Below, in pieces: positions 16,490-40,989 of a DNA stretch of 64,000 nt. The position numbers and the translations under genes are program-made. This DNA comes from Actinomycetota bacterium (GTDB lineage: Bacteria; Actinomycetota; Actinomycetes; S36-B12). The notes beneath the pieces were generated by a model that searched no databases, was not told where the DNA came from, and saw only the letters and a list, made by a program, of their open reading frames with translations. Where the stretch lies: assembly GCA_016870515.1 (NCBI GenBank), contig VGBL01000003.1, forward strand, positions 1-64,000, read 5' to 3'. Numbering within the stretch: position 1 is the first letter of the stretch; every line of letters begins with the position of its first letter.

Positions 16490-17392
16490 TCAGCCGTCGA
16501 GGAGGGCCGACGCCGCGGCGACGTCACGGGACATCTGCTCCACGAGGGCATCCACCCTAGGAAACACCTGCTGGCCGCGCAGTCTTTCGACGAATTCCAG
16601 CCCGACGTGGGTGTCGTAGAGGTCCAGGTCGTCGCGGCCGATGACATAGGCCTCCACTCGCATCTCGTGGCCGCCGAACTGGGGATTGGTGCCCACGGAG
16701 ATGGCGGCCGGCAGTCGCGTGTCATCGCCCGCCGCGAGGTAGCCGGCGTACACGCCCTCGGGCGGCACGGCCAGGCCTGGCTCGACCTCGACGTTGGCCG
16801 TCGGGTAGCCCAGTTCGCGCCCGCGTCGATCCCCTTCAATCACCGGCCCCTCAAGCCTGTGCGGACGGCCGAGCACCGCCTTGGCGCCGCGCATGTCGCC
16901 CTCCGCGATGCGGTCGCGGACATAGGTGGACGACAAGATCACCGAGCCGCGGCCGGGGATCTCCTCGGCAACGAGGTCGACGACGTCGACAGCGAAAACC
17001 AGGTCGCGGCCCAGCTCGGTCAGGGTTTCCACGTCACCCGCGGCCCTTTTGCCGAAGCGGAAGTTGCGGCCCACGATCACAACGTCGGCATTGATCCCCT
17101 CGGGGTCGCGCAGCAGGCGAGCGAACTCCGCGGGAGTCTGAGCGGCCAATTGCGGCGTGAATGGCAGGACGATCACCTCGTCGGCACCCGCGCGCTCCAA
17201 GAGGGCGATGCGCCGATCCAGGGTCGTCAGCCGTGCCGGTGCACGATCGGGCCTGAGCACGGAAACCGGGTGGGGGTCGAAGGTGACGACCACCGCGCTG
17301 CCGTCGTCGCCGGCCCTTCGCACGGCACGTCCCACGAGCCCCTGGTGCCCCCGGTGGACGCCGTCGAAGTTGCCGATGGTCGCGACGCGCAC
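16490..17392 (-). CDS. ribF: Bifunctional riboflavin kinase / FMN adenylyltransferase
   Basis: ATIGNFDGVHRGHQGLV (nucleotidyltransferase motif), STYVRDRIAEGD and GRELGYPTANVEV (riboflavin kinase motif); GTG start at 17392. Confidence 0.93.
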   Translation of the reverse strand: MRVATIGNFDGVHRGHQGLVGRAVRRAGDDGSAVVVTFDPHPVSVLRPDRAPARLTTLDRRIALLERAGADEVIVLPFTPQLAAQTPAEFARLLRDPEGINADVVIVGRNFRFGKRAAGDVETLTELGRDLVFAVDVVDLVAEEIPGRGSVILSSTYVRDRIAEGDMRGAKAVLGRPHRLEGPVIEGDRRGRELGYPTANVEVEPGLAVPPEGVYAGYLAAGDDTRLPAAISVGTNPQFGGHEMRVEAYVIGRDDLDLYDTHVGLEFVERLRGQQVFPRVDALVEQMSRDVAAASALLDG

Positions 17393-17478
17393 GTGCGAAG
17401 CCTGCCACGGAGCGCCACGTGGGAGGATGAGGCCTCCCGGGTTCGCGATCCCCGCGCCCCGGGGCACCGGGAGAAGAT

Positions 17479-18567
17479 GTGGCGGATCGCCTGCTGCTGC
17501 ACATCGGCACGCAGAAGTCGGGTACGACATACCTCCAGCGCGTCATGTCACAGCTCTCCGGCAGCCTCAAGCGCGACGGCGTCCTGTATCCCCTTCGCCT
17601 GCATGGCCGACGCGAGGTCTACAACCACGAGGCCGCCGCCTACGGACTGCTCGGCAACACCTCGTTTCCTTGGGTGGCCGAGTCCAAGGCGCGCGCGTGC
17701 GAGGGGTCGTGGGAGGGACTCACGCGCAAGGTCCGCGAATGGGACGGCACAGCGATCGTGTCGGGAGAGGCGATATCCGTCATCACCTCCGGAGCGGCCG
17801 AGCGCCTGGTCGGCTCGCTCGGGATCGCCAACACCCACGTCATCATCACGGCACGCGATCTGGGTCGCGTCCTGCCAAGCTCGTGGCAGCAGCACATTCG
17901 CAACGGGCGCTCCACGCCCTTCGCTCGCTACCTCACACAACAGGCCGAGCGCCGTGGCGATGGCGACGCCGCGCAGCGAGCGGCACGGTGGGACGCCGAT
18001 CCCGAGCAGACGTTCTGGCGTGCGTACGCCATCGGCACCCTCGTGGACCGGTGGGCTCCCCTCGCTCGCACCGTCACCGTCGTGACCGTCCCTCGCCGAG
18101 GGGCGGCGCCCCACGAGCTGTGGCACCGGTTCAGCCGCGCGCTCGACCTGGGCGGCCTCCTGCCTGAGATTCCCCCACAAATCGACGACCTCGAGGCCAA
18201 CGTCGGGCTCACCGAGCCGGAGGTCCTCGTACTGGCCGGACTCAACCGTAGGATCGACCCGGTCAAGGCAGACGATTCCGAGGTACGCCGGCTCCGCGGC
18301 CGCATCGTGCGCGAAGCGTTCGTACCGCGTGCCGACCGAGGCTCACCCGTGTCGATCCCGCGCACTTGGCTGCCGCATGTCACCGCGTGGGCGCAGCAGG
18401 ACGCCGACGTGCTGCGATCGAGCTCTGCCCTTCTGGTCGGCCCCGAGTCCGACCTGCTCGTCGACCCCGACGCACCCTCAGGGGACGGCCCTGACGCCGA
18501 CGAGGTGGCGCGCGCCGCGGGCGCAGCCATGGCCTACCTCGCCAATGTCTGCACGCGAGGCGCCTAG
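17479..18567 (+). CDS. Sulfotransferase-like P-loop protein (paralog A)
   Basis: N-terminal LLHIGTQKSGTTYLQRVM matches the 5'-phosphosulfate-binding loop; ARDLGRVLPSSWQQHIRNG is shared with the gene at 19560. Confidence 0.75.
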   Translation: MADRLLLHIGTQKSGTTYLQRVMSQLSGSLKRDGVLYPLRLHGRREVYNHEAAAYGLLGNTSFPWVAESKARACEGSWEGLTRKVREWDGTAIVSGEAISVITSGAAERLVGSLGIANTHVIITARDLGRVLPSSWQQHIRNGRSTPFARYLTQQAERRGDGDAAQRAARWDADPEQTFWRAYAIGTLVDRWAPLARTVTVVTVPRRGAAPHELWHRFSRALDLGGLLPEIPPQIDDLEANVGLTEPEVLVLAGLNRRIDPVKADDSEVRRLRGRIVREAFVPRADRGSPVSIPRTWLPHVTAWAQQDADVLRSSSALLVGPESDLLVDPDAPSGDGPDADEVARAAGAAMAYLANVCTRGA

Positions 18568-18576
18568 ACTGTTTGG

Positions 18577-19557
18577 GTGCTGCTGTTGGTATGCGGGATG
18601 CATCGTTCCGGCTCGACCCTCGTGTGGCAGATCACCCGCCAACTCGTCGACGGACAACCGGGCCTTCGAAACCCCCGTGGCGTGGAGCCCGACGCCTTTC
18701 CCGCGGCCGCGGCTGATCCCGGCGATCTCCTCCTGGCCAAGATCCACTACCGCGGGTCACTGAAGAAGGCGGACTTCCCCGATCAGGGTGTTCGCTACCT
18801 CTACACCTACCGCGATCCGCGCGACGTCGTCGCGTCACTCTTCCGCAAGGGCCGGTTCAAGCCTGGGAGTCCCAAGCGGGGCCCCAGCAAAAGCAAGCTC
18901 ATCGCTCGACGCGAGCTCAATGGCGACACGTTTTGGCGGGCCCGCAAGAACCTCTGGGTTGGCCGCTACGAGGACTTCCGCGACGACGTACCGCGGCTCA
19001 TAAGCCAGCTTGCCGACTTCCTCCAGGTGCCTGTCACCGCCGAGCGAGTCGAAGAGATTGCCGCCCTTGTCAGCCTGGAGCAACAGCAAGAACGCGTTTG
19101 GGAGTCTCGCGCCTCTGGGGTGGACCCCGACCTGCGTGTGACGGCTAATCACATCACCGATGGTCGCGAGGGCGCCTGGCGAGACACCCTCACCCCGGAG
19201 GAAGTCGCGGCCGTCGAGGCAGAGTGCGCGCCATGGTTGGTCGAGCACGGATACGACCTCGACACCCCTGTCGGCCGACGCAAGGCTGGACTCGCCAGCC
19301 CGGCAGCCACGGCCAGCGCGCGGCCCGCTCCAACGTCGGCCGCAGACGTGTCGGTGGCCGTGCTCGCCCCGTTCGCCGGCGCTGCTGGCTTCGCCTGCGT
19401 CGGCGTCCTCGTGCACAGGCGACTCCCGGGCGCAGCGCTTCTCATGTGGGCGGCGGCAGCGGCAGTGGGAGGGGCGGCGGCCTACCGCGCCGGACGAGAA
19501 GGGATCTCGCCGCGCGAGGTCGCCCAGTCACTCCTAGCGCGCGTTCGCGGCGGCTAG
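18577..19557 (+). CDS. Sulfotransferase-like protein with C-terminal hydrophobic hairpin
   Basis: LLVCGMHRSGSTLVWQ (5'-PSB-like) and LYTYRDPRDVVASLFRKG (3'-PB-like R-D-P-R-D). The C-terminus has two hydrophobic segments (VAVLAPFAGAAGFACVGVLV / AALLMWAAAAAVGGAAAY). GTG start. Confidence 0.75.
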   Translation: MLLLVCGMHRSGSTLVWQITRQLVDGQPGLRNPRGVEPDAFPAAAADPGDLLLAKIHYRGSLKKADFPDQGVRYLYTYRDPRDVVASLFRKGRFKPGSPKRGPSKSKLIARRELNGDTFWRARKNLWVGRYEDFRDDVPRLISQLADFLQVPVTAERVEEIAALVSLEQQQERVWESRASGVDPDLRVTANHITDGREGAWRDTLTPEEVAAVEAECAPWLVEHGYDLDTPVGRRKAGLASPAATASARPAPTSAADVSVAVLAPFAGAAGFACVGVLVHRRLPGAALLMWAAAAAVGGAAAYRAGREGISPREVAQSLLARVRGG

Positions 19558-19559
19558 CG

Positions 19560-20633
19560 ATGGCGCGCCGCGTCATCTTGCACATCGGACCCCGTAAGAC
19601 CGCGACCACCTACGTCCAGCGAGTACTGCAGTCGCTCGTGCGATCGCGTGAGATCCCGGCCGAGATGTACCCAGTGCGCACGCGCGACCGACTCGACCAC
19701 AACCAGGTGCCCGGCCTTATAGACCTTGTGCGTTCCGCCGGGGAGATCGGCCTGCAGGAGGATGCCTGGACGCAGCAGGACGGCTCGGATGCTCGGGCCC
19801 TGCTGAGCGCGGTCGCCGGCACCGCAGGCGACGTGATCCTCTCGGCCGAGGCCATGTCGGTGCTCCGCCCGTCAGGGGTTCAGGCGGTCGTGAGCGCCCT
19901 GGCGCCGGCGCCCGTCGACGTGATCGTCACCGCGCGCGCCCTGGATCGGGTACTGCCGAGCTCGTGGCAACAGCACATGCGCAATGGGAACTTCGAGGCC
20001 TACGACGCCTATCTCGCCCTCCGGGCGGAGGAGCGCAGCACACGGATCTACGAGACGGAGCTGTCCCGCGCATTCTGGCGCGCCTACCGCTACGGCGATC
20101 TCGTGCGTCGCTGGCAGGAGGCGGCCCGCTCGGTGTCGGTGGTGACGGTGCCTGCCGGATCATCCGATCCCGCGGTGACCTGGCGGCGCTTCCGTGCAGC
20201 CACCGGAGTCGAGGAACTCCCCTCGGATCACCCGCCGATTCCCGACGACCGCGCCAACGTCTCGCTGACCGGTGCCGAGGCATTCGCCATCTACGGCCTC
20301 AACCTCATCGCCCGTGCGGCCGGTCACGGTCGACGCGAGGTTAGGGCATGGCATCGGACCCTGATTCGGGAGGGGTGGACGGATCGCGCCGATCGCGGGA
20401 CGCGACTGGGCCTACCACCGGACATGCGTGAACCGGTGTCCTGCTGGGCCGCAGATGACCTCGCAGGTCTCCAGGCCACGAATGCGGTCGTAAACGGTGA
20501 CCTCAGGGATCTTGAAGCCGCAGACATGACGGCAGACCCCGGCCTACCCACTGCCGACGAGGTCGCAGCCGCGTCGGGAGCGGCGCTCACGCTGCTCTTC
20601 GCTCAGCACTCCGGTCAATCCGCCGACGACTAG
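19560..20633 (+). CDS. Sulfotransferase-like P-loop protein (paralog B)
   Basis: VILHIGPRKTATTYVQRVL at the N-terminus; ARALDRVLPSSWQQHMRNG and VVTVPAG shared with the gene at 17479. Confidence 0.7.
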   Translation: MARRVILHIGPRKTATTYVQRVLQSLVRSREIPAEMYPVRTRDRLDHNQVPGLIDLVRSAGEIGLQEDAWTQQDGSDARALLSAVAGTAGDVILSAEAMSVLRPSGVQAVVSALAPAPVDVIVTARALDRVLPSSWQQHMRNGNFEAYDAYLALRAEERSTRIYETELSRAFWRAYRYGDLVRRWQEAARSVSVVTVPAGSSDPAVTWRRFRAATGVEELPSDHPPIPDDRANVSLTGAEAFAIYGLNLIARAAGHGRREVRAWHRTLIREGWTDRADRGTRLGLPPDMREPVSCWAADDLAGLQATNAVVNGDLRDLEAADMTADPGLPTADEVAAASGAALTLLFAQHSGQSADD

Positions 20634-21742
20634 GGTCGACGTGCCGGCAGGGCCGCCCCCGTCGGGCCGGCCCGCGCCCACCGCTCCAACTGAGCCACGA
20701 ACGCCTCCCCGTCGTGCCGCCAGTCCGCGTTGTCGCGCACCCACTGCCGTCCGGCGTCGGCCATTGCCTGTCGTTTCTCGTCGTCCCGGTTGAGCATGGC
20801 CACAGCGTCGGCGACCGCGCCCGGATCGCCGAAGGGCACGATAACTCCGCCGCCGGAGGCTTCGGCCAGCTCGCGGGCCAGCGGGAGCGGCGTGGAGACG
20901 AAGGGCACCCCGCGCGCGAGGTATTCGATGAGCTTGGTCGGCATCGAATGGCGGTAATTGGCCTCGTCATGGAGCAGCGACAGGCCCACGGTGGCGCCCT
21001 CGATCGAGCGAAGGGCTTGAGCGTTGGCAACGTAACCGTGCCACACCACGTCGCCGCGCGCGTCGGCGTCTTGCAGCCTCTGGCGGAATACGCCGTGAGC
21101 CTCGCCCGTGATCTCCATCGTGATCTCGGGCGTAATCCTGCGACCCACCTCGATGAGGTCGTCACCGCCTCGCTGCGATGTGAGCGTGCCGACGTAGATC
21201 GCCCGGCCGCGCTCGCTGGGGCGCACGCTCTCCGGCACGATCGTGGTGTTGGCAATGATCGGGTGCGGCCGCTCGAACCTGTCGGCGTAGGCGGTCTCCG
21301 CGAGAATCAGGTGCATGCGTCGCTCCGCGAACCGCTCCAGACGTCGCACGGCCCCGGCTGCCGGGGCACGAAGAGGGCCGGGGATCCACGCCTTCATCGA
21401 GACAGCCGCGGCGGTGTCCTCGTGGACATCCCACACGATGACCGGATGGCGGATGCCGATCGACGCCGCGACGAGTTCGGGTTCATGCAGCAGGACGACG
21501 TCGTGCCTGGGCGCCTCCCGTCGCAAGACGCGTCGAGCCGCTGTGAACGCTGCCACTCGACGACGCCCGGAGGCGCGCGGGACATCGATGGTTCGCACTC
21601 CGGGTGGCGGGGCGGCTCCCGCCTGGGCGAAGGGTGCGGCGAGCGTCACGGAGTGGCCCGCCGCGAGCAGGGCGCCGATCTGCCGCTCGACCACCCGCGC
21701 ATCCAGCGGGTGCTGGACGGTCACAACGACGAGGACGCGCAC
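20630..21742 (-). CDS. GT4-type glycosyltransferase
   Basis: GT-B architecture: N-terminal HPLDARVVERQIGALLAAGHSVTLAAP; C-terminal YVGTLTSQRGGDDLIEVGRRI and MPTKLIEYLARGVPFVSTPLPLARELAE. Confidence 0.85.
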   Translation of the reverse strand: MRVLVVVTVQHPLDARVVERQIGALLAAGHSVTLAAPFAQAGAAPPPGVRTIDVPRASGRRRVAAFTAARRVLRREAPRHDVVLLHEPELVAASIGIRHPVIVWDVHEDTAAAVSMKAWIPGPLRAPAAGAVRRLERFAERRMHLILAETAYADRFERPHPIIANTTIVPESVRPSERGRAIYVGTLTSQRGGDDLIEVGRRITPEITMEITGEAHGVFRQRLQDADARGDVVWHGYVANAQALRSIEGATVGLSLLHDEANYRHSMPTKLIEYLARGVPFVSTPLPLARELAEASGGGVIVPFGDPGAVADAVAMLNRDDEKRQAMADAGRQWVRDNADWRHDGEAFVAQLERWARAGPTGAALPARRP

Positions 21743-21743
21743 G

Positions 21744-22679
21744 TCAGTCGCTGCCCAACTCCACGGCGAACTCCTCGCCCGCCTGTTCGTTGGCCTCCTT
21801 GCGCTTCTTGCGTCGTTCGCGCAGGGCCTTCTTGGTCTTCAAGCCGAATCTCTGCTCGTATTCGGTAACGACGTCGTCGGGATCACCGTCGGCGAGGATT
21901 CGGCCCTGATCGAGCCAGATGACGCGATTGCATGCCGAGCGGATCGCGCCCATCGAATGGCTCACCAGGAAGATCGTGTCGGCCTCATCTCGCAAGTGCT
22001 GAATCCGCTGACTGCTGCGCTTGACGAACTCGCCATCGCCGGTCGACAGTGCCTCGTCGATGAGGAGTATCTCGTGGGTCACCGCCGATGCGATCGCGAA
22101 CTTCAGTCGCGCGGACATACCGGATGAGTAGGTCTTCATGGGCATATGGATCGCATTACCGATGCCGCTGAATTCGACCACGCTCGAGTAGCGCTCCTTG
22201 ACCTCCGCGGGCGTGAGACCCAGCGCCAACAACCCCAGTTCGACGTTGCGCGAGCCAGGCAGCGCCTGCATGAGCGCCGAGCTCACGCCCAGCATGGTCG
22301 GCTGCCCGTCGGCATAGACCGATCCGTGGTTGGGAGGGAGTAGGCCGGCGATCGCCCGCATGAGGGTCGACTTGCCCGCGCCATTCTTGCCGATGATGCC
22401 GATCGCATCGCCTTGCCGAGCGACGAAGGAGACCCCTCGAAGCGCATGCACCTCGCGCTTGATCGACACCGGGCGGCGGGGCCGCAGCCGCAGCCACCAG
22501 CGAGCGTCCTCGGGGGGCGGGCCTTCGGGCGTCGTCCAGACCCGGTAGACGATATGGAGGTCGTCGACTACGACCTTGATCGGCGCATGTGGATCCCCCG
22601 CCTTCGGTGGCTCGACCCCCTCGAGGTCGAGGTCATCGGCGAAGTCGACGTCGTCGAAGTCGGGCTCATCCGCGGCCAT
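21744..22679 (-). CDS. Polysaccharide ABC transporter ATP-binding protein (Wzt/TagH/KpsT type)
   Basis: Walker A GKNGAGKST, signature YSSGMSARLKFA, Walker B ILLIDEALSTGD. The characteristic GxxDxEF region and ABC-2 permease partner indicate a glycan exporter. Confidence 0.9.
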   Translation of the reverse strand: MAADEPDFDDVDFADDLDLEGVEPPKAGDPHAPIKVVVDDLHIVYRVWTTPEGPPPEDARWWLRLRPRRPVSIKREVHALRGVSFVARQGDAIGIIGKNGAGKSTLMRAIAGLLPPNHGSVYADGQPTMLGVSSALMQALPGSRNVELGLLALGLTPAEVKERYSSVVEFSGIGNAIHMPMKTYSSGMSARLKFAIASAVTHEILLIDEALSTGDGEFVKRSSQRIQHLRDEADTIFLVSHSMGAIRSACNRVIWLDQGRILADGDPDDVVTEYEQRFGLKTKKALRERRKKRKEANEQAGEEFAVELGSD

Positions 22680-23514
22680 ACTGGTCCTCCGCGCGCCAGA
22701 AGAACCACAGGCTCAGGGGCAGCATGACCAGGGCCCAGCCTGCGGCGAGCGCCCAGTTGATCCAGCCGCCCGGCGAGAGGTACGAGTCCATCAGCGCGTC
22801 GCGCATGCAGTTGAGGTACACCGTGCCGGGATTGACCTCGATGATGAATGTGGCCCACGGTGGAACGCCGAGGCGATCGAGGCGATCCGCGATCGGGATC
22901 ATGACGCCCGACATGTAGCCCCAGATGCGAAGTAGATAGGGCAGCACCTCGGAGATGTCCTGGACGGTGGCCACGATGCGGGCCATGATCATGGCCATTC
23001 CGAGGCTGAACATCACGATCAGAAGCAGCGCGACGGGGGCCAGCAGCCACTGCCACGTGATGGGCTCCCCCGTGACCAGCAGGATGACGATCATGATCGG
23101 CAGCGCGTAGTAGAAGACGCGCAGCTGCTTGGTGACGACGGCGATCGGCAGGACGGCCCGCGGGAAGTGGATCGACCGCACGAGGCCCTCGTTGCCCGAG
23201 ATCGACCGCGAGCCGGCGGTCACGGATTGACGAATGAGCGCGAAGGTGAACACGCCCACCGCAAGGAAGCCGGTGTAGTTCTCGACGCTACCGCGACCGC
23301 CCAAGAGGAAGCCGAAGAGAAACCAGTAGAGAGCCATGGTCAGGACTGGATCCATCACCTGCCAGAACTGCCCCAGTCGGCTCTTTGTGGTCTGCTTGTC
23401 AACGCTGGCCTTGGCGAAGGCACGAATGAAGACCCTGCGCTGCCACAGGCTGCGCAGGTAGGCGAAGAAGCCCGGCCTGCTGTTGACGGGCCGGAGGTCG
23501 TACTCCGCCGCCAA
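22666..23514 (-). CDS. Polysaccharide ABC-2 type transporter permease (Wzm/TagG type)
   Basis: LYWFLFGFLLGGRGSVENYTGFLAVGVFTFALIRQSVTAGSRSISGNEGLVRSIHFPRAVLPI is typical of the ABC-2 polysaccharide export permease; overlaps the ATPase gene. Confidence 0.88.
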   Translation of the reverse strand: MAAEYDLRPVNSRPGFFAYLRSLWQRRVFIRAFAKASVDKQTTKSRLGQFWQVMDPVLTMALYWFLFGFLLGGRGSVENYTGFLAVGVFTFALIRQSVTAGSRSISGNEGLVRSIHFPRAVLPIAVVTKQLRVFYYALPIMIVILLVTGEPITWQWLLAPVALLLIVMFSLGMAMIMARIVATVQDISEVLPYLLRIWGYMSGVMIPIADRLDRLGVPPWATFIIEVNPGTVYLNCMRDALMDSYLSPGGWINWALAAGWALVMLPLSLWFFWRAEDQYGRG

Positions 23515-23549
23515 CTGCCGGGCGTCGCGCTCCTGCCCGTCGACCAGGA

Positions 23550-24830
23550 TCAGAGTCGCACCGCCTTGTCATCGGTCGTGACCCCGCGCGTATCGAAGAA
23601 TCGGCTTGCCCGACGGGACAGCGCATCAATGTCGTAGGCCGCATGGTTTTGCAGCAGGACACAGACGTCGGCACCGTCGATGGCATCATCGAGATCGGGG
23701 ACCGCATCGAGGCTGGCGCCGCCCAGGTGCCACGTGCGCACGTGGGGATCGTGGAAGGTGACGTCGACGCCCTTGTCGATCAACTCCTGGGCGATTGGCT
23801 TGGCTGGCGACTCGCGCTGATCAGCGATGTCTGGCTTGTAGGTGACGCCGAGCAGCAGCACCTTGGCCCCGCGCAGTGCCTCGCCCTGCTCGTTGAGGAT
23901 GTCTTGGATGCGGCGCACGACGTAGGCCGGCATGCCCGCATTGATCTCCTGCGCCAGCTCTACGAAGCGGAACGGATAGCCCAGCTTCGCCTGCACCTGA
24001 TAGGAGAGATAGTTGGGATCGATGGGGATGCAGTGACCGCCCACACCGGGCCCGGGGTAGAAGGCCTGGAATCCGAAGGGCTTGCTGCGAGCCGCCGCGA
24101 TGACATCCCACAGGTCGATGCCCAACTCATGGCAGAAGCGGGCCATCTCGTTGACGAGCGCGATGTTGATGTGGCGGTAAGTGTTTTCGAGCAGCTTGGC
24201 CATCTCTGCCTCGCGCGTGCCGCGCGCGCGTACGACGGTGTCGACGAAACGGCCGTAGAAGGCCGCTGCCGCCTCCGTGCAATTGGGAGTGTGGCCGCCG
24301 ACCACCTTGGGGGTGTTGCGCATGCCGAACGTCGGGTTGCCCGGGTCGATGCGCTCGGGACTGAAGGCCAGGTGGAAGTCACGCCCGGCAACAAGGCCCC
24401 CGGCCTCGAGGATGGGGCGTACCTCGTCGTCGGTGGTACCCGGGTACGTCGTGGACTCCAGGACGATCAGGTGCCCGGGACGCAGGTGGGTCGCAATGGC
24501 CCGGGTGGCGCCGAGCACCGGGCCAAGGTCGGGACCTCCCTCGGGGGTCAACGGGGTGGGCACGCAGATCACGATCGCGTCGGCGCCGGCCATCACAGAA
24601 GGATCAGTGGTGGCCTCGAAGCCGGCGGCGAGCATGTCGGCGATGTCACCGTCGGACAGATCGTCGACGTGCGAGCGGCCAGAACGCAGCCCCTCGACCA
24701 CGCGCTCGGAGACGTCGAACCCGGTGACGGACAGACCCGAACGGGCGGCCTCCTGCGCGAGGGGTAGCCCGACGTAGCCCAGGCCGATCACCACGAGGTC
24801 GCGAGCCATAGTCACGTCATCCTTCATCAC
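23550..24830 (-). CDS. Nucleotide-sugar dehydrogenase (UDP-ManNAc/UDP-GlcNAc 6-dehydrogenase type)
   Basis: VIGLGYVGLPLA, CVPTPLTPEGGPDL, ESTTYPGTTDDEV, NTYRHINIALVNEMA and PGPGVGGHCIPIDP are UDPG/MGDP dehydrogenase signatures. Confidence 0.9.
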   Translation of the reverse strand: MMKDDVTMARDLVVIGLGYVGLPLAQEAARSGLSVTGFDVSERVVEGLRSGRSHVDDLSDGDIADMLAAGFEATTDPSVMAGADAIVICVPTPLTPEGGPDLGPVLGATRAIATHLRPGHLIVLESTTYPGTTDDEVRPILEAGGLVAGRDFHLAFSPERIDPGNPTFGMRNTPKVVGGHTPNCTEAAAAFYGRFVDTVVRARGTREAEMAKLLENTYRHINIALVNEMARFCHELGIDLWDVIAAARSKPFGFQAFYPGPGVGGHCIPIDPNYLSYQVQAKLGYPFRFVELAQEINAGMPAYVVRRIQDILNEQGEALRGAKVLLLGVTYKPDIADQRESPAKPIAQELIDKGVDVTFHDPHVRTWHLGGASLDAVPDLDDAIDGADVCVLLQNHAAYDIDALSRRASRFFDTRGVTTDDKAVRL

Positions 24831-24863
24831 GTGCGCCCGCCGAACGCGGATGCACTCGTCGAG

Positions 24864-26567
24864 TCAGCCAGACAGCGTCGGCTCGGCCGACCCGCCGGGC
24901 GAGGACGCCGACGGTGGATTTCCCTCGATGGGAACGCCGAGAGCAGCGTACGCGGTGCGGTAGCGCCTGGTCACGGAAGGCCACGTGCGGTGTGCCGCGG
25001 CCCAGGCCTTTCCCCGCTCCCCCAGGTCGCGGCGCAGGGCCGGATCCCGCAGCTCCCTGAGGGCCTGCGCCAAGGCGCCCGGATCTCCTGCTGCCACCAG
25101 CGGCGTCTGGGGAGCCAGGACCTCGGCCACCGCCGGCAGGTCGGTGCCGACCACCGGCAGCCCGCGGGCCTGCGCCTCCAGTGGCTTCAGCCCGGTGACC
25201 TCCCTGTTGAGGGGGGTATCTAGGCGTGGGTAGGCAAAGACGTCGAGCGCGTCGAAGTAGCGGCTGACCTCGACCACGGGCACGCGTCCGGGTGTCGTCA
25301 TTGGCACGGCGAGGTCGCGTGCCCGAGTGCGCAGCCGAGGAAGCGCCGGCCCATCACCGACCAGCAGTACACGCGCATCGATCCCCTCCGCCCGAAGTCG
25401 CGCTAACGCATCGAGCATGACCTCGAAGCCTTCAGCGTCGTGGATGGTTGCCACGCTGCCAACCCAGAAGCCATCGCGGTCAAGCCCGAGGTCCGCGCGT
25501 GCCTCGACAGACTCGCGCTTGCCCTCGAGGAACCCGACAGGCACGCCGTTAGGAACGACGACCACGCGGTCGGCATCCACGCCACGCGCGATGATCTTGG
25601 CACGCATGGATTCGCCGAGAGTGGTGACCAGGTCGGCAGCCCTCATGACCTCGGTATGCCGCTCACGCGTCCACCGGTAGGTGTCGCTGTCGCGTGCAGA
25701 CTCGCCCCCGTGACGGGACAGCCAGGTGTCCTCATGAAAGGCGCGCACCTCATAGGCGACCGGGATGCCCGCGCGGCGCCCCACTTCAAGGGCCACTCGC
25801 GCGTTGACGTGATCGGATGCCGCGTGCAGAAGATGCGGACGGAAGTCGTCGGCCACGCGCGCTAGCAGGTCGGCATATGCGCGCGGCAGTGCCGCGTCGG
25901 ACGGCATCACCGCGGGAAGGAGCCGGAGGTAGGGCACTCCATCGAGGAATTCGGTGGGCGCAGCATCGAGTTCGCCGTAAGTCACGGGATATCCCGGCCG
26001 CGTGGCCGCGCGCGCATCCCAGCCGAACTCTCGCTGAGCAAGCAGGATGCGATGGGTGCGGATCGTCGAGCCCGCCTGCGTCAGTGGGAGCGAGTTGGTG
26101 ACGACGTGGAGTATGCGGGCTGGGGGCGTGCCTGGCGGGAAAGCCGCATCGTCACCTTGTGCATAGGCCCACGTCGGAAGTGGCGACGTGAGCTCATCAA
26201 CTTGACGGCGAGCCGTGCGCGCAACTCGACGACCCCGTGCATCGTGCACCGGATGGTCGAGCACGTCGATCAGGTCACCTCTGAGGCGACGCACCGCGAG
26301 TTCGCAGGAGGGTCGGCGCGAGTCGTCGGGATCGAGCAGTCCGAGCGCGATCTCCGCGTCGACCAGGCGGTCCTCGGCCACCGCCCGATCGACCAGCGCG
26401 GCCGGATCGGTGCCGCGGGGGCCGCGGGCCGTCGCTGGCCACGCGCGCTCGAGCGCCGCTCGGCCCCGGGCCGGATCTTCCGCGAAACGACGCAGGGCAC
26501 CGGTCACGGCGAGCGGAAGGCGACGCGCCACTTGCGCGCCTCGCCGCAGGGCGCGCAGCCGTGTCAT
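24864..26567 (-). CDS. GT4-type glycosyltransferase
   Basis: VTNSLPLTQAGSTIRTHRILLAQREFGWDARAATRPGYP, VVVPNGVPVGFLEG and PLEAQARGLPVVGTDLPAVAEVL. ATG at 26567 has a strong upstream GAGGAGG; the track ORF start at 26747 is over-extended. Confidence 0.87.
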   Translation of the reverse strand: MTRLRALRRGAQVARRLPLAVTGALRRFAEDPARGRAALERAWPATARGPRGTDPAALVDRAVAEDRLVDAEIALGLLDPDDSRRPSCELAVRRLRGDLIDVLDHPVHDARGRRVARTARRQVDELTSPLPTWAYAQGDDAAFPPGTPPARILHVVTNSLPLTQAGSTIRTHRILLAQREFGWDARAATRPGYPVTYGELDAAPTEFLDGVPYLRLLPAVMPSDAALPRAYADLLARVADDFRPHLLHAASDHVNARVALEVGRRAGIPVAYEVRAFHEDTWLSRHGGESARDSDTYRWTRERHTEVMRAADLVTTLGESMRAKIIARGVDADRVVVVPNGVPVGFLEGKRESVEARADLGLDRDGFWVGSVATIHDAEGFEVMLDALARLRAEGIDARVLLVGDGPALPRLRTRARDLAVPMTTPGRVPVVEVSRYFDALDVFAYPRLDTPLNREVTGLKPLEAQARGLPVVGTDLPAVAEVLAPQTPLVAAGDPGALAQALRELRDPALRRDLGERGKAWAAAHRTWPSVTRRYRTAYAALGVPIEGNPPSASSPGGSAEPTLSG

Positions 26568-26643
26568 GGGCACCTCCTCGTCTGGGATAGTAGAGGTGGC
26601 CCGACACCCCGACCGGCTCGCAGGCGCCCACAGGAAGGCCCCG

Positions 26644-27729
26644 ATGACCCTGCTCCACGTGACCGGAGCGCGCCCGAACTTCCCCAAGGCGGCCCCTGTC
26701 ATCGCGGCCCTCGATGCCGCGGGTGCCCGCCAGCGGCTCGTCCACACCGGGCAGCACTACGACGATCGCATGTCGGAGATCTTCTTCCGCGAGCTCAACC
26801 TGCCGCGCCCGGACATCAACCTGGGCGTCGGGTCCGGCAGCCACGCCCAGCAAACTGCCGCGCTCATGGTGGGGCTCGAACGCGAATTCCTCGAGACGCG
26901 TCCCCAACTCGTGATCGTCTACGGAGACGTCAATTCCACGCTCGCCGCCGCTGTCACGGCCGCCAAGCTCGGGCTTCCCGTCGCTCACGTCGAGGCGGGG
27001 CTTCGCAGCTTTGACCTGTCGATGCCCGAGGAGATCAACCGCATCGTCACCGACCGCCTATCGGACCTCCTCTTCTGCACGAGTGCCGATGCCATCGCTC
27101 ATCTCGCTCACGAGGGCGTCGAGGAGCAGCGCATCCACCTGGTCGGCAACCCGATGATCGATACTCTGCTGGCCAACCTCGACCGCCTCGACGTCGAGCG
27201 CGCGCGCGACGCACTGGGACTTCCCAAGCGCTACCTCGTCGCCACGCTCCACCGGCCCGGCAACGTCGATGATCCCGAGGCCGCGGAAGCCCTCGTCGCG
27301 CTCATGCACGCCGCCGCGGCCAGGGCCGACATCGTGCTGCCGCTCCACCCACGGGGGCGAGCGGTGCTCGAGGCGCTCGGCATCGCCGATCATCCGCGCA
27401 TCCATGTCGTCGAACCCCTGGGCTACCTGGAGTTCATCTCGCTCGTACGCGGAAGCGTCGCCGTGATCACCGACTCCGGCGGGGTGCAGGAAGAGACGAC
27501 GATCCTCGGGGTTGCGTGCCTCACGCTGCGACCCAACACCGAGCGACCGATCACCATCACCCATGGCACCAACCGGCTCGCGTCCCCCGACACGCTGCTC
27601 GACCTACTCGACCTCGCGCTGACCGGGGAGACCGACGGCACCAAGGCACCCCCGCTGTGGGATGGCCGCGCCGGCCAGCGCATCGCCGGTGTGATCCTTG
27701 ACTGGCTCGACGACCGAGACCCAGCATGA
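26644..27729 (+). CDS. wecB: UDP-N-acetylglucosamine 2-epimerase (non-hydrolysing)
   Basis: VTGARPNFPKAAPVIAAL, HTGQHYDDRMSEIFF, VYGDVNSTLAAAV, HVEAGLRSFD and TDSGGVQEETTILGVACLTLRPNTERPIT are classic WecB/MnaA motifs. Confidence 0.94.
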   Translation: MTLLHVTGARPNFPKAAPVIAALDAAGARQRLVHTGQHYDDRMSEIFFRELNLPRPDINLGVGSGSHAQQTAALMVGLEREFLETRPQLVIVYGDVNSTLAAAVTAAKLGLPVAHVEAGLRSFDLSMPEEINRIVTDRLSDLLFCTSADAIAHLAHEGVEEQRIHLVGNPMIDTLLANLDRLDVERARDALGLPKRYLVATLHRPGNVDDPEAAEALVALMHAAAARADIVLPLHPRGRAVLEALGIADHPRIHVVEPLGYLEFISLVRGSVAVITDSGGVQEETTILGVACLTLRPNTERPITITHGTNRLASPDTLLDLLDLALTGETDGTKAPPLWDGRAGQRIAGVILDWLDDRDPA

Positions 27730-29330
27730 CGGAGCCCGTTGCCGACACCGCGCCCGGAAAGGCCCCGGAGGCCGGGGCCACCGACGAGCGCGCGTTGTCA
27801 GACAGCGCGCGCCTGCGCGGGCAGCTGCGACAGGCCGAGGCTCGCGCCGAGCGCGCCGAGCGGGCCCTGGAGCGCATGGAACGCAGCGCCAAGTACACCG
27901 TGGGGTCGCTGCTGGTCGAGGCCGCACGAAGTCCGCGACGCCTGTTGCTGCTCCCGCGCGATCTCTGGCGGGTATGGCGCCTGCGGCGGCGCGGGAGGGA
28001 CACGCCCGGAGGTGCAGCCTCGACCCGTTCGCGCCGCGACGATGCACTCGACACCGATGCCGCGCGTCTGCTCCTGCCTCGCGCATCCGCGCGGCCGGAT
28101 TCGGCCTTCGCCATCGTGGGGGCCCTGTCCGAATCGACGGCCGCCGCCTGGTCGCCGTATGTCGCCGTCACCGCCGCCCTCCCCCACCAGGCGGCGGAGA
28201 CCCTACGTGCCCTCGGCGCGGACCTCGTCGTCATCGAACACGCCTCGGCGCTGCCCGGCGAATCATGGGCATTCCTGGGCGACCCCGCAGCGGCGGATCG
28301 GCAACTCGCAGCGCTTCGACTCATCGACGCTGCCCGCGAACAGGGGATCCCGGTCGTCCTGCTACGCAACACGCCCGTTGCCAACACTGCCTTCCTCGCA
28401 CCGCTCGCAGCGCGGTGCGATCTTATCGTCGACGGGCCCGGTTCCCGGCGCGACAACCCGTGGAATCCAGGAATCGACCCGGCAGCCTGGACGACGCCCG
28501 ACACCGGACGGCCCGATCGCGCCGCGATCTTCGGATCCGATCCCCTCACCGACCCGCGGAGCGCACTGGGTGACCGCGCTCTCGCGGCGGCCCTCTCGCA
28601 AGCCCTGTCCGCCGCGGCCATCCAGACGATCTCACCGGATCCCCGGCTGCCCGTGGTCGCGGCCCGGCGCGCCGCCTTGTCGTCCGCCGCATTCGGCATC
28701 ATGTCGCCCCTGCGCATTGCCGACGGCACGGTGGGCGCGCACCCCGGGAGCCTGGGGGTCCTCGCCTCCGGGCGACGGCTCGTCGGCGGCCCCGACGCCG
28801 ATATCGACAGCCTCCTGCCCCACACGGCGTGGTCACGCGTCAGGATCGAGCCCGGCACGGACCTGCCGAGTGCGCTGCCGGCCGCGCAGGCGCCGCTCAC
28901 CGACGAGGAAGGTCGAGCACTGCGGCGCGAGATACTCCTGCACGCCTCGGCACCCGTGTGCCTGCGCGATCTGGCGCAGCGACTTGGGCTTCGGGGTCGT
29001 CCCGCCGCATGCTGGGACATCTCCCTCGTCACCCATGACGCCGACATCGATGCCGTGCTGCTGCAGACATGGCGACCGCACGAGGTGCTCATATCGACGC
29101 CTCTCGCCGATCGTGCACGAGACACCCTTAACGACCACGGCATCGCCGTCGTCAGTGTCCACGAGGCGCGCACGCGCGATGAGTTGTCGCTGGCCAGCGG
29201 CTCACCCCTGGTGGCCGCACAGGTCGACCTGGGCGATAAGCACGCCCTCGCCGACCTGCTCGTCGAGCGCGTGGCGGGGTTGCCCACCCGATCCCGGCAC
29301 AGTGACGCAGCCCTGTGGGGCACCTCATGA
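27726..29330 (+). CDS. Coiled-coil protein of unknown function within the glycan locus
   Basis: N-terminal Ala/Glu/Arg heptad-like helix (ARLRGQLRQAEARAERAERALERMERSAKYTVGSLLVEAARSPRRLLLLPRDLWRVWRLRRRG) then a globular region with no motif I recognise. Start overlaps the wecB stop. Confidence 0.7.
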   Translation: MTEPVADTAPGKAPEAGATDERALSDSARLRGQLRQAEARAERAERALERMERSAKYTVGSLLVEAARSPRRLLLLPRDLWRVWRLRRRGRDTPGGAASTRSRRDDALDTDAARLLLPRASARPDSAFAIVGALSESTAAAWSPYVAVTAALPHQAAETLRALGADLVVIEHASALPGESWAFLGDPAAADRQLAALRLIDAAREQGIPVVLLRNTPVANTAFLAPLAARCDLIVDGPGSRRDNPWNPGIDPAAWTTPDTGRPDRAAIFGSDPLTDPRSALGDRALAAALSQALSAAAIQTISPDPRLPVVAARRAALSSAAFGIMSPLRIADGTVGAHPGSLGVLASGRRLVGGPDADIDSLLPHTAWSRVRIEPGTDLPSALPAAQAPLTDEEGRALRREILLHASAPVCLRDLAQRLGLRGRPAACWDISLVTHDADIDAVLLQTWRPHEVLISTPLADRARDTLNDHGIAVVSVHEARTRDELSLASGSPLVAAQVDLGDKHALADLLVERVAGLPTRSRHSDAALWGTS

Positions 29331-31576
29331 CGCGAGACCTACGGGCGATCGTCTACGGCGATGTCAACCTCAACATCCTCGACGGGTCGGCCATCTGGGT
29401 CCAGTCGATGACCGAGGCCCTCTCGCGATGCGGCGTCGACGTGCGGGTCCTCCTGAAGGCCCCCGTCGAAACGCCGCGACTCGTCGATCCGATCCGCGCC
29501 CTGCCGGGCGTGCGAGTCGTCGATCCCTTTAGCGAGCAGCTCACGGTCGGCAAGACGCCGCTCGCCGTACCCGAGGCGGTGCGCCTCCTCGAGCAGCTTG
29601 ATGGCGCGGAGCGGCCCGGCGCGGCGGCTGAGCCGCCCCTGTCGGGCTGGGCCGATCTCGTCGTGGTCCGCGGACTGCGACTGGTCACGGCGGCGGCCGC
29701 GAGTTCGCTCCGCGGACGCCTGTGGACCTATCTCACCGACATCCCGCAGTCGCCCATCGAGATGCTTCCCGAGACGCTCGAGCAACTCGAGTCCATCGCC
29801 GAGTCGAGCCGATTCATGCTCTGTCAGACGGAGGAACTCAGGGACCTACTGGAGTCCACGGTCCCGGCCGCGTGTGGACGCTGCGTGCTGTGGAGCCCGG
29901 TGGTCCCGGAGCCTGGCTTCCCGATCGCACCTCGGCCCGCACCACAGGGTCGCCAAACCCCCATCAGCATCGTCTACACGGGCAAGTTCGCCCCCTTGTG
30001 GAACACCCTGCAGATGACTCGGCTTCCGGCCCTGCTTGCCGACCAAGGCATTGCCGCCGAGCTTCACATGATCGGCGACAAGATCCACGACGTCCCGGAC
30101 GACCCGGACTGGTCGTGGCGCATGCGCGAGGCCCTGCAGACCAGTCCCGGTGTCATCTGGCACGGAGGCATGCCGCGCCAGGAGGCTATGCGCCTCACCG
30201 CCTTAGCCGACCTCGGCCTGTCATGGCGCGACCCCGAGATGGATGCCAGCCTCGAACTGTCGACCAAGGTCCTGGAGTTCGGATCGCTCGGGCTCCCGGC
30301 GCTGCTCAATCGCACTCCCATGCACGAGGATCTCCTCGGCTCGGACTACCCCTTCTTCGTCGGCGACGAGGGCGACATCGTGGCGGCGGTCGCCGCAGCC
30401 ATCGACTCGCCGCATCACTACGACTCCGCGCGCGAGGCCATGACTACCGCCGCCCGGCCATTCAGCATGGTGTCCTGTGTTGACCGACTGTCTTCATTGC
30501 TGGCTCGCGCATTCCCCCCGCGGCCTGGGGCCCTTGCCCATCGGGAGCAGCCGCTTCGCGTCGGCGTGGCCAGTCACGACCTGAAGTTCTTCTCACGCCT
30601 CCTCGAGCACCTGCGGTCCGTGCCGGGGATCGAAGTGCGCCTCGACACCTGGAGCAGCCTGTCAACGCATGACGAGCAGGCCAGTCGCGAGATGGTCGAG
30701 TGGGCCGACGTCGTCATTTGCGAGTGGGCCGGGCCCAACATCGTCTGGTATAGCCGGCACAAGCGCGCCGGGCAGCGGCTCATCGTTCGCCTGCATCGCT
30801 TCGAACTCGATGCAGGCTGGCTGTCCGACGTGCGGATCGACGCGGTCGATCAGGTCGTCTGCGTCAGCCCCTTCTACGGCCAGTTGACCGCCGAGCGCAC
30901 CGGGTGGCCAGCCGACCGCATCGTCGTGATTCCCAACTGGGTCGACGTGGATGAATTCGCGCGACCCAAGTTGCCCGGTGCCGAGTTCACCCTGGGCATG
31001 ATCGGCATCTCCCCCATGCGCAAGCGACCCGACCTCGGGGTCGACGTCCTCTCTGTCCTGCGTCGACGCGATCGTCGCTATCGGCTCGCGGTCAAGTCCA
31101 AGCTGCCCTGGGACTACTGGTGGATCTGGCGCAAGCCCGAGGAGCGTGCCGACACCGAGGCACTCTTTGGCCGCCTTCACGATGACCCGACCGTCAAGGG
31201 TGCCGTGTCCTTCGATGGATTCGGTGGCGATGTGCCCGCGTGGCTGCGGCGCGTGGGCTGGGTTCTCTCCACGTCCGACGACGAGAGCTTCCACCTGGCC
31301 CCCGCCGAGGGGATGGCGTCGGGCGCTGTACCGGCCCTGCTCCCCTGGCCGGGCGCCGACACCATCTACGACCGGCGCTGGATCCACGCCGATCCCGGCG
31401 CATTGGCGCGGGCAATCCACGACACAGTGTCATCGGGCTCCTGGGCCGTGGCCGCTGCGGAGGCGCAGCGCCAGGTCCGGGCATCCTTTCCCCTCTATGC
31501 CGTGTGCGACGAATGGCTTCGGATCCTCGTCGAGGACCTATCGCCTGACACGGCGCACGGCACGCTGGCCCGCTAG
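29327..31576 (+). CDS. Double-domain GT4-like glycosyltransferase
   Basis: Two GT-B-like units: the first starts AIVYGDVNLNILDGSAIWVQSMTEAL, with STKVLEFGSLGLPALLNR; the second starts LRVGVASHDLKFFSRLLEHLRSVPGIEVRLDTW, with IVVIPNWVDVDEF and HLAPAEGMASGAVPALLPW. Start chosen at the ATG near 29327, overlapping the previous gene. Confidence 0.8.
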   Translation: MTRDLRAIVYGDVNLNILDGSAIWVQSMTEALSRCGVDVRVLLKAPVETPRLVDPIRALPGVRVVDPFSEQLTVGKTPLAVPEAVRLLEQLDGAERPGAAAEPPLSGWADLVVVRGLRLVTAAAASSLRGRLWTYLTDIPQSPIEMLPETLEQLESIAESSRFMLCQTEELRDLLESTVPAACGRCVLWSPVVPEPGFPIAPRPAPQGRQTPISIVYTGKFAPLWNTLQMTRLPALLADQGIAAELHMIGDKIHDVPDDPDWSWRMREALQTSPGVIWHGGMPRQEAMRLTALADLGLSWRDPEMDASLELSTKVLEFGSLGLPALLNRTPMHEDLLGSDYPFFVGDEGDIVAAVAAAIDSPHHYDSAREAMTTAARPFSMVSCVDRLSSLLARAFPPRPGALAHREQPLRVGVASHDLKFFSRLLEHLRSVPGIEVRLDTWSSLSTHDEQASREMVEWADVVICEWAGPNIVWYSRHKRAGQRLIVRLHRFELDAGWLSDVRIDAVDQVVCVSPFYGQLTAERTGWPADRIVVIPNWVDVDEFARPKLPGAEFTLGMIGISPMRKRPDLGVDVLSVLRRRDRRYRLAVKSKLPWDYWWIWRKPEERADTEALFGRLHDDPTVKGAVSFDGFGGDVPAWLRRVGWVLSTSDDESFHLAPAEGMASGAVPALLPWPGADTIYDRRWIHADPGALARAIHDTVSSGSWAVAAAEAQRQVRASFPLYAVCDEWLRILVEDLSPDTAHGTLAR

Positions 31577-32457
31577 CCGAAGACCGCCGCCCACACGGCA
31601 CGGTCGTCGCGCTGCTGGGCCACCCCGACAAGGTCGTTGCCGTGGATGAAGGCGGTGGAGCCCCCCTCGACACCGGCCGGCCACGGCAATTGCACGCCGT
31701 GGCGCGCGAGCCTCGCCGCATCGCCGTCAATCTCGATGGCGGGCAGCGTGCGCCGCGCCGCCTCCGCTGCCGACATGAGTGGCCCGCCGACTCCAAGCTC
31801 CTCGAGGGCCTTTGCATCCGTTAGGTCGAACGCGCCGGATCGAATCCGTCTCAGTGTGGACACGTGCCCGCCGACGCCCAGGATCTGGCCGAGATCGCGG
31901 GCGAGTGCCCGGACGTAGGTGCCTGCCGAGCAGTCGACGGACACATCGACCATCGCTACCGTGCGTTCACCGCGTCGCTCATGACGCACCCCGAGGAGAT
32001 CGAAGGAGTGCACAGTGACTGGCCGTGCCGACAACTCGACATGCTCCCCGGATCGCACCAGGTCATAGGCTCGCTTGCCAGCCACCTTGATCGCACTCAC
32101 CGCACTCGGCCGCTGCTGGATCTCGCCCACGAAGTGGGACATCGCGCGGGCGATCTGCGAATCGGAAAGCCCGGCGGTATCGGTTGCAGCGATGACGTCG
32201 CCGGCCGCGTCGTCAGTGACGGTTGATTCACCCAGGATGATCGTGCTGACGTACGCCTTGTCGCTGGCGGCGAGGTAGCCAAGTAGTCGAGTGGCCTGGC
32301 CGACGCCCACGACCAAGACTCCCGTCGCATCCGGGTCCAGCGTGCCCGCATGCCCCACCTTACGGGTCCCCAGCGCCTTGCGGACACGCCCCACGACGCC
32401 GTGAGAGGTGATCCCCGATGGCTTATCGACGATAAGGATGCCGACCGGATCATTCAC
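31573..32457 (-). CDS. truB: tRNA pseudouridine(55) synthase
   Basis: GILIVDKPSGITSHGVVGRVRKALGTRKVGHAGTLDPDATGVLVVGVGQATRL is the TruB signature. Confidence 0.95.
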   Translation of the reverse strand: MNDPVGILIVDKPSGITSHGVVGRVRKALGTRKVGHAGTLDPDATGVLVVGVGQATRLLGYLAASDKAYVSTIILGESTVTDDAAGDVIAATDTAGLSDSQIARAMSHFVGEIQQRPSAVSAIKVAGKRAYDLVRSGEHVELSARPVTVHSFDLLGVRHERRGERTVAMVDVSVDCSAGTYVRALARDLGQILGVGGHVSTLRRIRSGAFDLTDAKALEELGVGGPLMSAAEAARRTLPAIEIDGDAARLARHGVQLPWPAGVEGGSTAFIHGNDLVGVAQQRDDRAVWAAVFG

Positions 32458-38528: not shown

Positions 38529-38920
38529 GCGCGCTGGGCGAGGCGATCGCCGGCGAGGAGGCAGCCCTTTATGCCTACGGACTGTGCGGATCACGGCTTT
38601 TCGGGGCGGATCGTGACCGCGCCCTGGGCGGACTCGCCGCTCACCGAGCCCGGGTCCTGCAGTTACGCGACCTGGCGGGCGCGGCATCGATCGCCGGCAC
38701 TCCCGGCGGCTACGACATCGCACCCCCGGCTGGCGAGGCGGGGGCACGCGCGCTACTTGCCGACGTCGAGTCTCGACTTGCCGCAACCTACTCCGACCTG
38801 GCCGCCGCCACGTCGGGCGATGAGCGGACCAATGCGGCCCTCGCCGCCTGCGAGTGCGAGGTTCGCGCCATCGGATGGGGTGGCGATCCCGAGGCGTTCC
38901 CCGGGCATCCCACCGACTAG
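38525..38920 (+). CDS. DUF4439 / ferritin-like domain protein
   Basis: GEAIAGEEAALYAYGLCGSRLFGADRDRALGGLAAHRARVLQL, a DUF4439-like helical bundle; located beside rimP as in many actinobacteria. Confidence 0.75.
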   Translation: MSALGEAIAGEEAALYAYGLCGSRLFGADRDRALGGLAAHRARVLQLRDLAGAASIAGTPGGYDIAPPAGEAGARALLADVESRLAATYSDLAAATSGDERTNAALAACECEVRAIGWGGDPEAFPGHPTD

Positions 38921-38948
38921 ATTGGCCAGTTTCCATAATGTGGGCTCG

Positions 38949-40217: not shown

Positions 40218-40989
40218 TCACCCGCGCACGATCTGCACGGCGAGCACCACGATCAGCAGCGCCGTGACCGCGAGCAGCACCGTGCGCACGAACCCACTGC
40301 CCTTGGCCATGGCCATGCGCGCGCCCACGATGGCCCCCGCGATATTGCACGCACCCATGAGCAGGCCCACCACCCACAGCACCGACCCGGCGAGCCCAAA
40401 GACGATGAGCGAGGCCAGGTTGGTGCCCACGTTGACGATCTTGGCGGTCGCGGAGGCCTGCAGGAACGTGTACCCCAGGGCGGCGACCAGCAGGATGACC
40501 AGGAACGAGCCCGTGCCAGGACCGATGGCGCCGTCGTAGAAGCCGATTGCCACGCCGCCGACGATGGCTGTCACGAGGTGGCGGCGCCGCGAGGCCTCGC
40601 GTGCGACCAGTCCCATGTCGCGGCGAAAAGCGATGAAGCACCACACGACGATGAGGGCAACGAGGATGATCGGGCGAAAGACCTGCGATGGCACATGCAC
40701 GGCCACGGCTGATCCCGCCGCCGCTCCCCCGAATGCCGCAAACGCCATCGGCAGGGCGGTCGACAGTCGCGGGCGCTCGAGGATGCCGTAGGCAATGGCC
40801 GCCGCCGATGTGCCCAGGATCGACGACATCTTATTGGTGCCGAGGGCAACGGAGGGCTCCTGCCCCGGGTTGGCGATGAGCAATGCGGGCAACTGCAGGA
40901 GCCCTCCGCCCCCGCTCACCGCATCCACCCAGCCGGCCGCCGCCGCCACGACGCACAGCGCGACCACGACGTACCAGTCGGGTGTCATC
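40218..40989 (-). CDS. TSUP (TauE/SafE) family membrane transporter
   Basis: AAAAGWVDAVSGGGGLLQLPALL, GFYDGAIGPGTGSFLVILLVAALGYTFLQASATAKIVNVGTNLASL are TSUP signatures. Confidence 0.9.

What the first reader, a model, noticed from the sequence alone, without database searches (positions are those of the whole stretch)
17393..31576. Candidate sulfated surface-glycan locus between truB and ribF
In many actinobacteria truB is followed directly by ribF (order rimP-nusA-ylxR-infB-rbfA-truB-ribF-rpsO-pnp). Here ~14 kb separates them. The block encodes three sulfotransferase-like proteins, a Wzm/Wzt-type exporter, WecB- and WecC-type enzymes (together consistent with UDP-ManNAcA supply), two GT4 enzymes, a double-domain GT and a coiled-coil protein. 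Inference: an ABC-transporter-dependent polysaccharide decorated by sulfation. No initiating glycosyltransferase, PAPS-forming enzyme or capping enzyme was seen in the window, so it would need genes elsewhere. I do not know of a characterised actinobacterial system with this exact gene set.
Basis: partly seen in the sequence, partly recalled or inferred. Interest (0 to 1): 0.75.

Follow-up and report, generated by a model that had tools for sequence, protein, structure and literature searches.

The report
Sulfated surface-glycan cassette in freshwater actinobacteria
A block of eleven genes, inserted between two housekeeping genes and conserved across a genus of uncultured aquatic actinobacteria, looks like a kit for building a sugar polymer, adding sulfate to it and exporting it; this matters because sulfated bacterial polysaccharides are firmly known almost only from cyanobacteria.

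Summary
Eleven genes fill 14.2 kb between ribF and truB, while truB and ribF are adjacent in most relatives. The same gene order recurs in the same genus and in a second genus, with partial evidence in a third, so it is a conserved, inserted cassette.

Two of the three "sulfotransferases" (ST1, ST3) are not recognised by Pfam. ST1 is modelled at pLDDT 92.7, its closest solved folds are PAPS sulfotransferases (NDST1, Z 14), and its PAPS-binding residues are invariant in 23 relatives. The genome encodes CysD and a CysN-CysC fusion but no detectable PAPS/APS reductase or sulfite reductase, so sulfation is PAPS's only evident use. Three relatives carry cysD/cysNC inside a version of the cassette.

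The exporter resembles TarGH (wall teichoic acid), so a teichuronic-acid-like, wall-linked polymer is likelier than a Gram-negative-style capsule. WecA-like and LCP genes lie elsewhere. UDP-ManNAcA is probable, not certain.

Prior art: Pontimonas (2018) and Actinoplanes wps-1 (2026) proposed sulfated actinobacterial surface glycans. Hence new variant of a known kind. No chemistry has been done.

The parts
16490..17392 (-). ribF (low-coordinate border of the insertion)
   Evidence: PF06574 and PF01687
17479..18567 (+). ST1: sulfotransferase of a family that Pfam does not recognise; NDST-like fold
   Evidence: AF2 pLDDT 92.7; NDST1 Z 14.0; invariant K13, T16, T17, R126, S134
18577..19557 (+). 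ST2: PF00685 sulfotransferase with a C-terminal hydrophobic segment (probable membrane anchor)
   Evidence: PF00685 53 bits; alignment to retinol dehydratase / SULT fold; hydrophobic segment 257-280; only PF00685 match in the genome
19560..20633 (+). ST3: paralogue of ST1 (about 38% identity)
20630..21742 (-). GT4 glycosyltransferase a
   Evidence: PF00534, PF13692
21744..22679 (-). Wzt/TarH-type ATPase, without a long C-terminal carbohydrate-binding domain
   Evidence: TarH 6jbh 190 bits, TagH 7dd0 178, RfbE-type 134; TagH models best in NCBIfam, below cut-off
22666..23514 (-). Wzm/TarG-type permease
   Evidence: PF01061; TarG 6jbh_C best PDB match, 49 bits
23550..24830 (-). UDP-N-acetylhexosamine 6-dehydrogenase (WecC/Cap5O type)
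   Evidence: Cap5O 231 bits, UDP-ManNAcA dehydrogenase 206, UDP-glucose dehydrogenase 141; GGHCIPIDP motif in the sequence
24864..26567 (-). GT4 glycosyltransferase b (resembles TIGR04063, below cut-off)
26644..27729 (+). non-hydrolysing UDP-sugar 2-epimerase (WecB; WbpI not excluded)
   Evidence: TIGR00236 288 bits; WbpI-type 8sxv 296 bits against UDP-GlcNAc 2-epimerase 4neq 277 bits
27726..29330 (+). coiled-coil protein with a predicted alpha/beta domain; function unknown
   Evidence: no Pfam family above threshold; AF2 pLDDT 49, inconclusive
29315..31576 (+). double-domain GT-B glycosyltransferase
   Evidence: PF13439, PF13692
31573..32457 (-). truB (high-coordinate border of the insertion)
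   Evidence: PF01509

Best explanation
The cassette makes an acidic surface polysaccharide that is sulfated in the cytoplasm and then exported whole. Inferred steps: a WecA/TagO-like enzyme elsewhere in the genome loads GlcNAc-1-phosphate onto the lipid carrier; the 2-epimerase and dehydrogenase supply UDP-ManNAcA (or a close relative); GT4-a, GT4-b and the double GT build the chain; ST1, ST2 and ST3 transfer sulfate from PAPS, made by CysD and the CysN-CysC fusion, to specific hydroxyl or amino groups; the TarGH-like Wzm/Wzt exports the finished chain; an LCP protein probably links it to peptidoglycan, giving a sulfated, teichuronic-acid-like wall polymer. Shown by computation: gene content, synteny, ST1 fold and PAPS-site residues, PAPS synthesis without detectable sulfate reduction, and cysD/cysNC clustering with versions of the cassette in relatives. 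Inferred: polymer chemistry, wall attachment and the order of steps.
For: ST1 fold: PAPS sulfotransferases hold the top 11 places of the structural comparison; NDST1 at Z 14.0 over 242 residues stands well above the kinase rows (Z 9 and below). Phosphate-binding loop and the R126/S134 pair are invariant in 23 relatives. PAPS pathway: CysD 462 bits, CysN-CysC fusion 786 bits. No CysH and no sulfite reductase detected in the window's genome. 31 of the 32 genomes tabulated as having CysC without CysH carry the ST1 family. cysD/cysNC next to ST1 and the exporter genes in L078, L080 and L061, and next to an ST alone in L033. Exporter closest to TarGH. WecA-like and LCP genes in the genome. Cassette synteny in genera g1 and g11, with variants elsewhere.
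Against: No chemical or genetic data. ST1, ST3 and the coiled-coil protein belong to no curated family. Foldseek alone gave no match at E below 0.001; the fold call rests on VIA-align, and apart from NDST1 the other sulfotransferases score only Z 9-10. The epimerase may be WbpI-type. Wall attachment is inferred only from exporter type and the presence of LCP. Several genomes outside the genus pair ST genes with CysH, so PAPS is not used only for sulfation everywhere. The CysC-ST association is not corrected for phylogeny.
Confidence: 0.75

Rival explanations
1. The ST genes sulfate the polymer, but it is a lipid-anchored or loosely held capsule or exopolysaccharide and not a wall-linked teichuronic-acid-like polymer.
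For: ABC-dependent export also serves capsules; Wzm and Wzt also match mycobacterial galactan exporter models.
Against: TarH/TarG and TagH are the best solved relatives; WecA-like and LCP genes are present; no KpsC/KpsS-type gene was recognised among the eleven cassette genes, though the rest of the genome was not searched for one.
Confidence: 0.25
2. The STs act on a glycolipid or other small acceptor (as mycobacterial Stf enzymes do) and only share the locus with an unsulfated polysaccharide.
For: Mycobacterial sulfotransferases STF1 and STF9 are among the structural relatives; one ST paralogue stands alone at G000:C7.
Against: Three STs are syntenic with the exporter and GT genes in genera g1 and g11, and further loci pair an ST with Wzm/Wzt; cysD/cysNC join versions of the cassette.
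Confidence: 0.1
3. ST1 and ST3 are P-loop proteins that have lost catalysis and serve as structural or regulatory parts of the synthase complex.
For: ST3 and its orthologues carry TATT where ST1 has SGTT in the phosphate loop; neither matches Pfam.
Against: PAPS-contact positions are invariant across 23 sequences, divergent paralogues included; ST2 is an ordinary PF00685 enzyme with the usual motifs.
Confidence: 0.08

Closest known systems
Micrococcus luteus teichuronic acid, [-4-ManNAcA-(1-6)-Glc-1-]n (PMC3005890)
   Same: Actinobacterial wall polysaccharide containing ManNAcA, started on GlcNAc and linked to peptidoglycan
   Different: No sulfation reported in the passages read; its gene cluster was not compared here
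Actinoplanes missouriensis wps-1 cluster (PMC13390465, 2026)
   Same: Actinobacterial polysaccharide cluster with two predicted sulfotransferases and a neighbouring sulfate adenylyltransferase/APS kinase gene; sulfation proposed, not verified
   Different: Wzx/Wzy-dependent; tied to sporangium formation; sulfotransferases assigned to InterPro families, whereas ST1/ST3 match no Pfam family
Pontimonas salivibrio (PMC6106888, 2018)
   Same: Planktonic actinobacterium with PAPS synthesis but no PAPS or sulfite reductase, proposed to sulfate cell-wall components
   Different: Microbacteriaceae, coastal marine; polyrhamnose core proposed; homology of its sulfotransferases to ST1 was not tested
Synechan xss cluster of Synechocystis 6803 (PMC8205485)
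   Same: Sulfotransferases within a surface-polysaccharide cluster; sulfate chemically shown there
   Different: Wzx/Wzy-dependent, cyanobacterial; the paper lists Pfam sulfotransferase families, whereas ST1 matches none
TarGH/TagGH wall teichoic acid exporter
   Same: Best solved relatives of Wzt and Wzm here
   Different: No Tag/Tar poly(ribitol/glycerol phosphate) synthase was recognised in the cassette

Membership tests
PAPS-dependent sulfotransferase superfamily (ST1) | sulfotransferase fold | tested here: met
   AF2 model pLDDT 92.7; NDST1 Z 14.0 and the top 11 rows all PAPS sulfotransferases
PAPS-dependent sulfotransferase superfamily (ST1, ST3) | 5'-phosphosulfate loop (KxxTT) and 3'-phosphate pair R...S eight residues apart | tested here: met
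   K13, T16, T17, R126, S134 invariant in 23 sequences
PAPS-dependent sulfotransferase superfamily (ST2) | PF00685 above gathering score | tested here: met
   53 bits against 22
PAPS-dependent sulfotransferase superfamily | PAPS supply in the same genome | tested here: met
   CysD and CysN-CysC fusion at G000:C17
PAPS-dependent sulfotransferase superfamily | sulfate transfer activity | not testable with these tools
   needs assay
ABC-transporter-dependent glycan export (Wzm/Wzt, TarGH) | ABC2 permease plus ATPase of the polysaccharide class in one locus | tested here: met
ABC-transporter-dependent glycan export | initiating polyprenyl-phosphate HexNAc-1-P transferase in the genome | tested here: inconclusive
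   two WecA-like PF00953 proteins besides MraY, both below the WecA model cut-off; no PF02397
ManNAcA-type teichuronic acid | UDP-ManNAcA supply (2-epimerase plus HexNAc dehydrogenase) | tested here: inconclusive
   TIGR00236 above cut-off; dehydrogenase closest to Cap5O; epimerase nearest solved match is WbpI-type
ManNAcA-type teichuronic acid | covalent link to peptidoglycan | not testable with these tools
   LCP protein present, 164 bits, but attachment needs chemistry
Synechan-type Wzx/Wzy sulfated EPS | Wzx flippase and Wzy polymerase in the cluster | tested here: not met
   none among the eleven genes by Pfam scan

The most novel reading that the evidence does not exclude
ST1 and ST3 found a new family of glycan sulfotransferases, not covered by Pfam, that sulfate a peptidoglycan-linked teichuronic-acid-like polymer, and members of this freshwater actinobacterial group keep CysDNC solely to feed this modification after losing sulfate reduction.
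Probability: 0.45. Interest if true: 0.65.

Novelty: new variant of a known kind. Interest (0 to 1): 0.5.

Why it matters
Sulfated polysaccharides in bacteria are chemically established mainly for cyanobacteria (PMC8205485, PMC13390465). A conserved, inserted cassette in uncultured aquatic actinobacteria, whose genome makes PAPS but shows no sulfate-reduction genes, makes it directly testable whether sulfated wall glycans are common in freshwater plankton. It also gives ST1/ST3, which Pfam does not recognise, a structural assignment.

Tried and rejected
Foldseek against PDB gave no match at E below 0.001 for ST1; VIA-align on the same candidates gave the clear answer. phmmer of ST1 against PDB found only an irrelevant weak match. 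The coiled-coil model was poor (pLDDT 49), so I did not run a fold search on it; profile comparison with the double GT found nothing. A weak APS-kinase match at G000:C3:91363 covers 40 of 152 positions in a 528-residue frame and was not counted as an APS kinase. Considered and rejected: Gram-negative-style capsule with a missing capping enzyme (the ATPase is TarH-like and lacks a long C-terminal domain); chance gap between truB and ribF (synteny).

Full report
Observation. The block between ribF (16490-17392, -) and truB (31573-32457, -) holds eleven genes in three runs of one strand: ST1-ST2-ST3 (+), GT4-a/Wzt/Wzm/dehydrogenase/GT4-b (-), epimerase/coiled-coil/double GT (+). Several neighbours overlap or nearly touch: epimerase/coiled-coil, coiled-coil/double GT and Wzm/Wzt overlap, and 9 bases separate ST1 from ST2. 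GC content over the block (0.65-0.71) matches the rest of the window, so it is not a recent foreign patch by composition.

Where it sits. The genome is a 2.4 Mb, 61-contig assembly, 96.7% complete. Relatives found in a named collection are mostly titled Candidatus Nanopelagicales, Actinomycetales or Actinomycetota MAGs, so I place the window in or near Nanopelagicales; the window's own record was not named. truB and ribF lie on one contig 14.0-14.4 kb apart in G000, G003, G005, G006, G008 (same genus) and G020 (genus g11), with the cassette between them. In the family's other genera the gap is 37-197 bp wherever full-length copies of both genes are on one contig. In genus g7 the ribF-ST1 junction is present in G016 and G027; in G016 truB lies on another contig, C113, with an ST-like C-terminal fragment about 12.5 kb away on that contig, consistent with the same insertion split by the assembly. 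In the wider order some gaps are 0.4-5 kb (G037, G041, G048, G054, G056, G057), contents not examined. The simplest reading is one insertion ancestral to these genera. Variants of the cassette sit elsewhere in other lineages: L078 and L080 (with dehydrogenase), L081 and L083 (no dehydrogenase seen).

Sulfation. ST2 is an ordinary PF00685 protein and the only one over the cut-off in the genome. ST1 and ST3 match nothing in Pfam or NCBIfam, though 8 of 23 family members hit Sulfotransfer_3 weakly. The ST1 model is confident (pLDDT 92.7, pTM 0.90). Aligned to PDB chains it is nearest to the sulfotransferase domain of human NDST1 in complex with PAPS (Z 14.0, 242 residues, rmsd 4.3) and the next rows, down to rank 11, are all PAPS sulfotransferases (Z 9.2-13.7); adenylate-kinase-like folds follow from Z 8.9 down. 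Across 23 sequences from three paralogous groups and several genera, K13, T16, T17, R126 and S134 are invariant; assigning them to the 5'-phosphosulfate loop and the 3'-phosphate pair rests on established knowledge of sulfotransferases.

PAPS. At G000:C17 lie cysD (TIGR02039, 462 bits) and a cysN-cysC fusion (PRK05506, 786 bits). The only PF01507 match in the genome is that CysD, so no PAPS/APS reductase was detected, and no sulfite reductase was found. The ten same-genus genomes likewise show a single PF01507 match; none has a PF01077 match except a short one in G001, which is 7% contaminated; APS kinase is full length in nine of the ten and a fragment in G008. From I tabulated 59 genomes: of 32 with APS kinase and no CysH, 31 have the ST1 family (exception G019); CysC versus ST gives a Fisher p of 0.0003, uncorrected for phylogeny. 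CysH was told from CysD by match length and score, a judgement of mine. In L078, L080 and L061 cysD and cysNC stand beside ST1 and a UDP-glucose-dehydrogenase-like gene, in the same stretch as Wzm/Wzt and GT4-a; in L033 cysD lies beside an ST without the cassette. Outside the genus, some genomes have both ST genes and CysH, so the dedication of PAPS to sulfation is a property of this group and not of every carrier.

Sugar and export. The dehydrogenase is nearest to Cap5O and UDP-ManNAcA dehydrogenases and carries GGHCIPIDP. The epimerase passes the WecB model, but its best solved match is a UDP-2,3-diacetamido-2,3-dideoxyglucuronic acid 2-epimerase, so UDP-ManNAcA is probable and not settled. 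Wzt and Wzm are nearest to TarH and TarG. Two WecA-like PF00953 proteins besides MraY, no PF02397 protein, and LCP matches of 164 and 31 bits occur in the genome. This fits a lipid-linked, wall-attached polymer of the teichuronic acid kind, as in M. luteus (PMC3005890), with sulfate added. That last combination is inference.

Coiled-coil protein. Eight homologues share an N-terminal coiled-coil, a basic amphipathic stretch and an alpha/beta region; no family, poor model, no profile link to the double GT. A scaffold or inactive GT is my guess.

Literature. No paper on this locus was found. Pontimonas, Actinoplanes wps-1 and synechan are the nearest precedents. They make the idea of sulfated surface glycans in actinobacteria known but unverified; the ABC-dependent, probably ManNAcA-containing form reported here, with an ST family that Pfam does not recognise, is a variant.

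Limits. Everything is from sequence; assemblies are fragmented; 'absent' means not detected in genomes of stated completeness.

Noticed in passing
L037:9243-10418 (G000:C7:37371-38414, -): A fourth ST1-family gene stands alone between a decarboxylase-like gene and glnA, far from the cassette.
   Followed up: partly
window 40218-41000, -: TauE/SafE-type sulfite exporter family protein (PF01925) in a genome where no sulfite reductase was detected.
   Followed up: no
L038:11992-12789, -: A roughly 250-residue protein without NCBIfam match lies just upstream of cysD; it looks like a metal-dependent oxygenase by eye only.
   Followed up: no
L062, L066, L067, L069, L070, L072-L077: ST1 homologues at 40-42% identity in Streptomonospora, Nocardiopsis, Actinomadura and other Nocardiopsaceae, mostly named strains; L067 and L070 looked at by eye, no cassette found there.
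   Followed up: partly
L085-L112: A Wzm-Wzt-ST module recurs in many Nanopelagicales and other actinobacterial MAGs; in L085 it lies beside GT2 and nucleotidyltransferase-like genes.
   Followed up: partly
window 38571-40208, +: 545-residue ORF with no Pfam match; may be spurious.
   Followed up: no
G009:C7:544-1413: truB copy with an in-frame TAG in one relative, possibly an assembly error.
   Followed up: no
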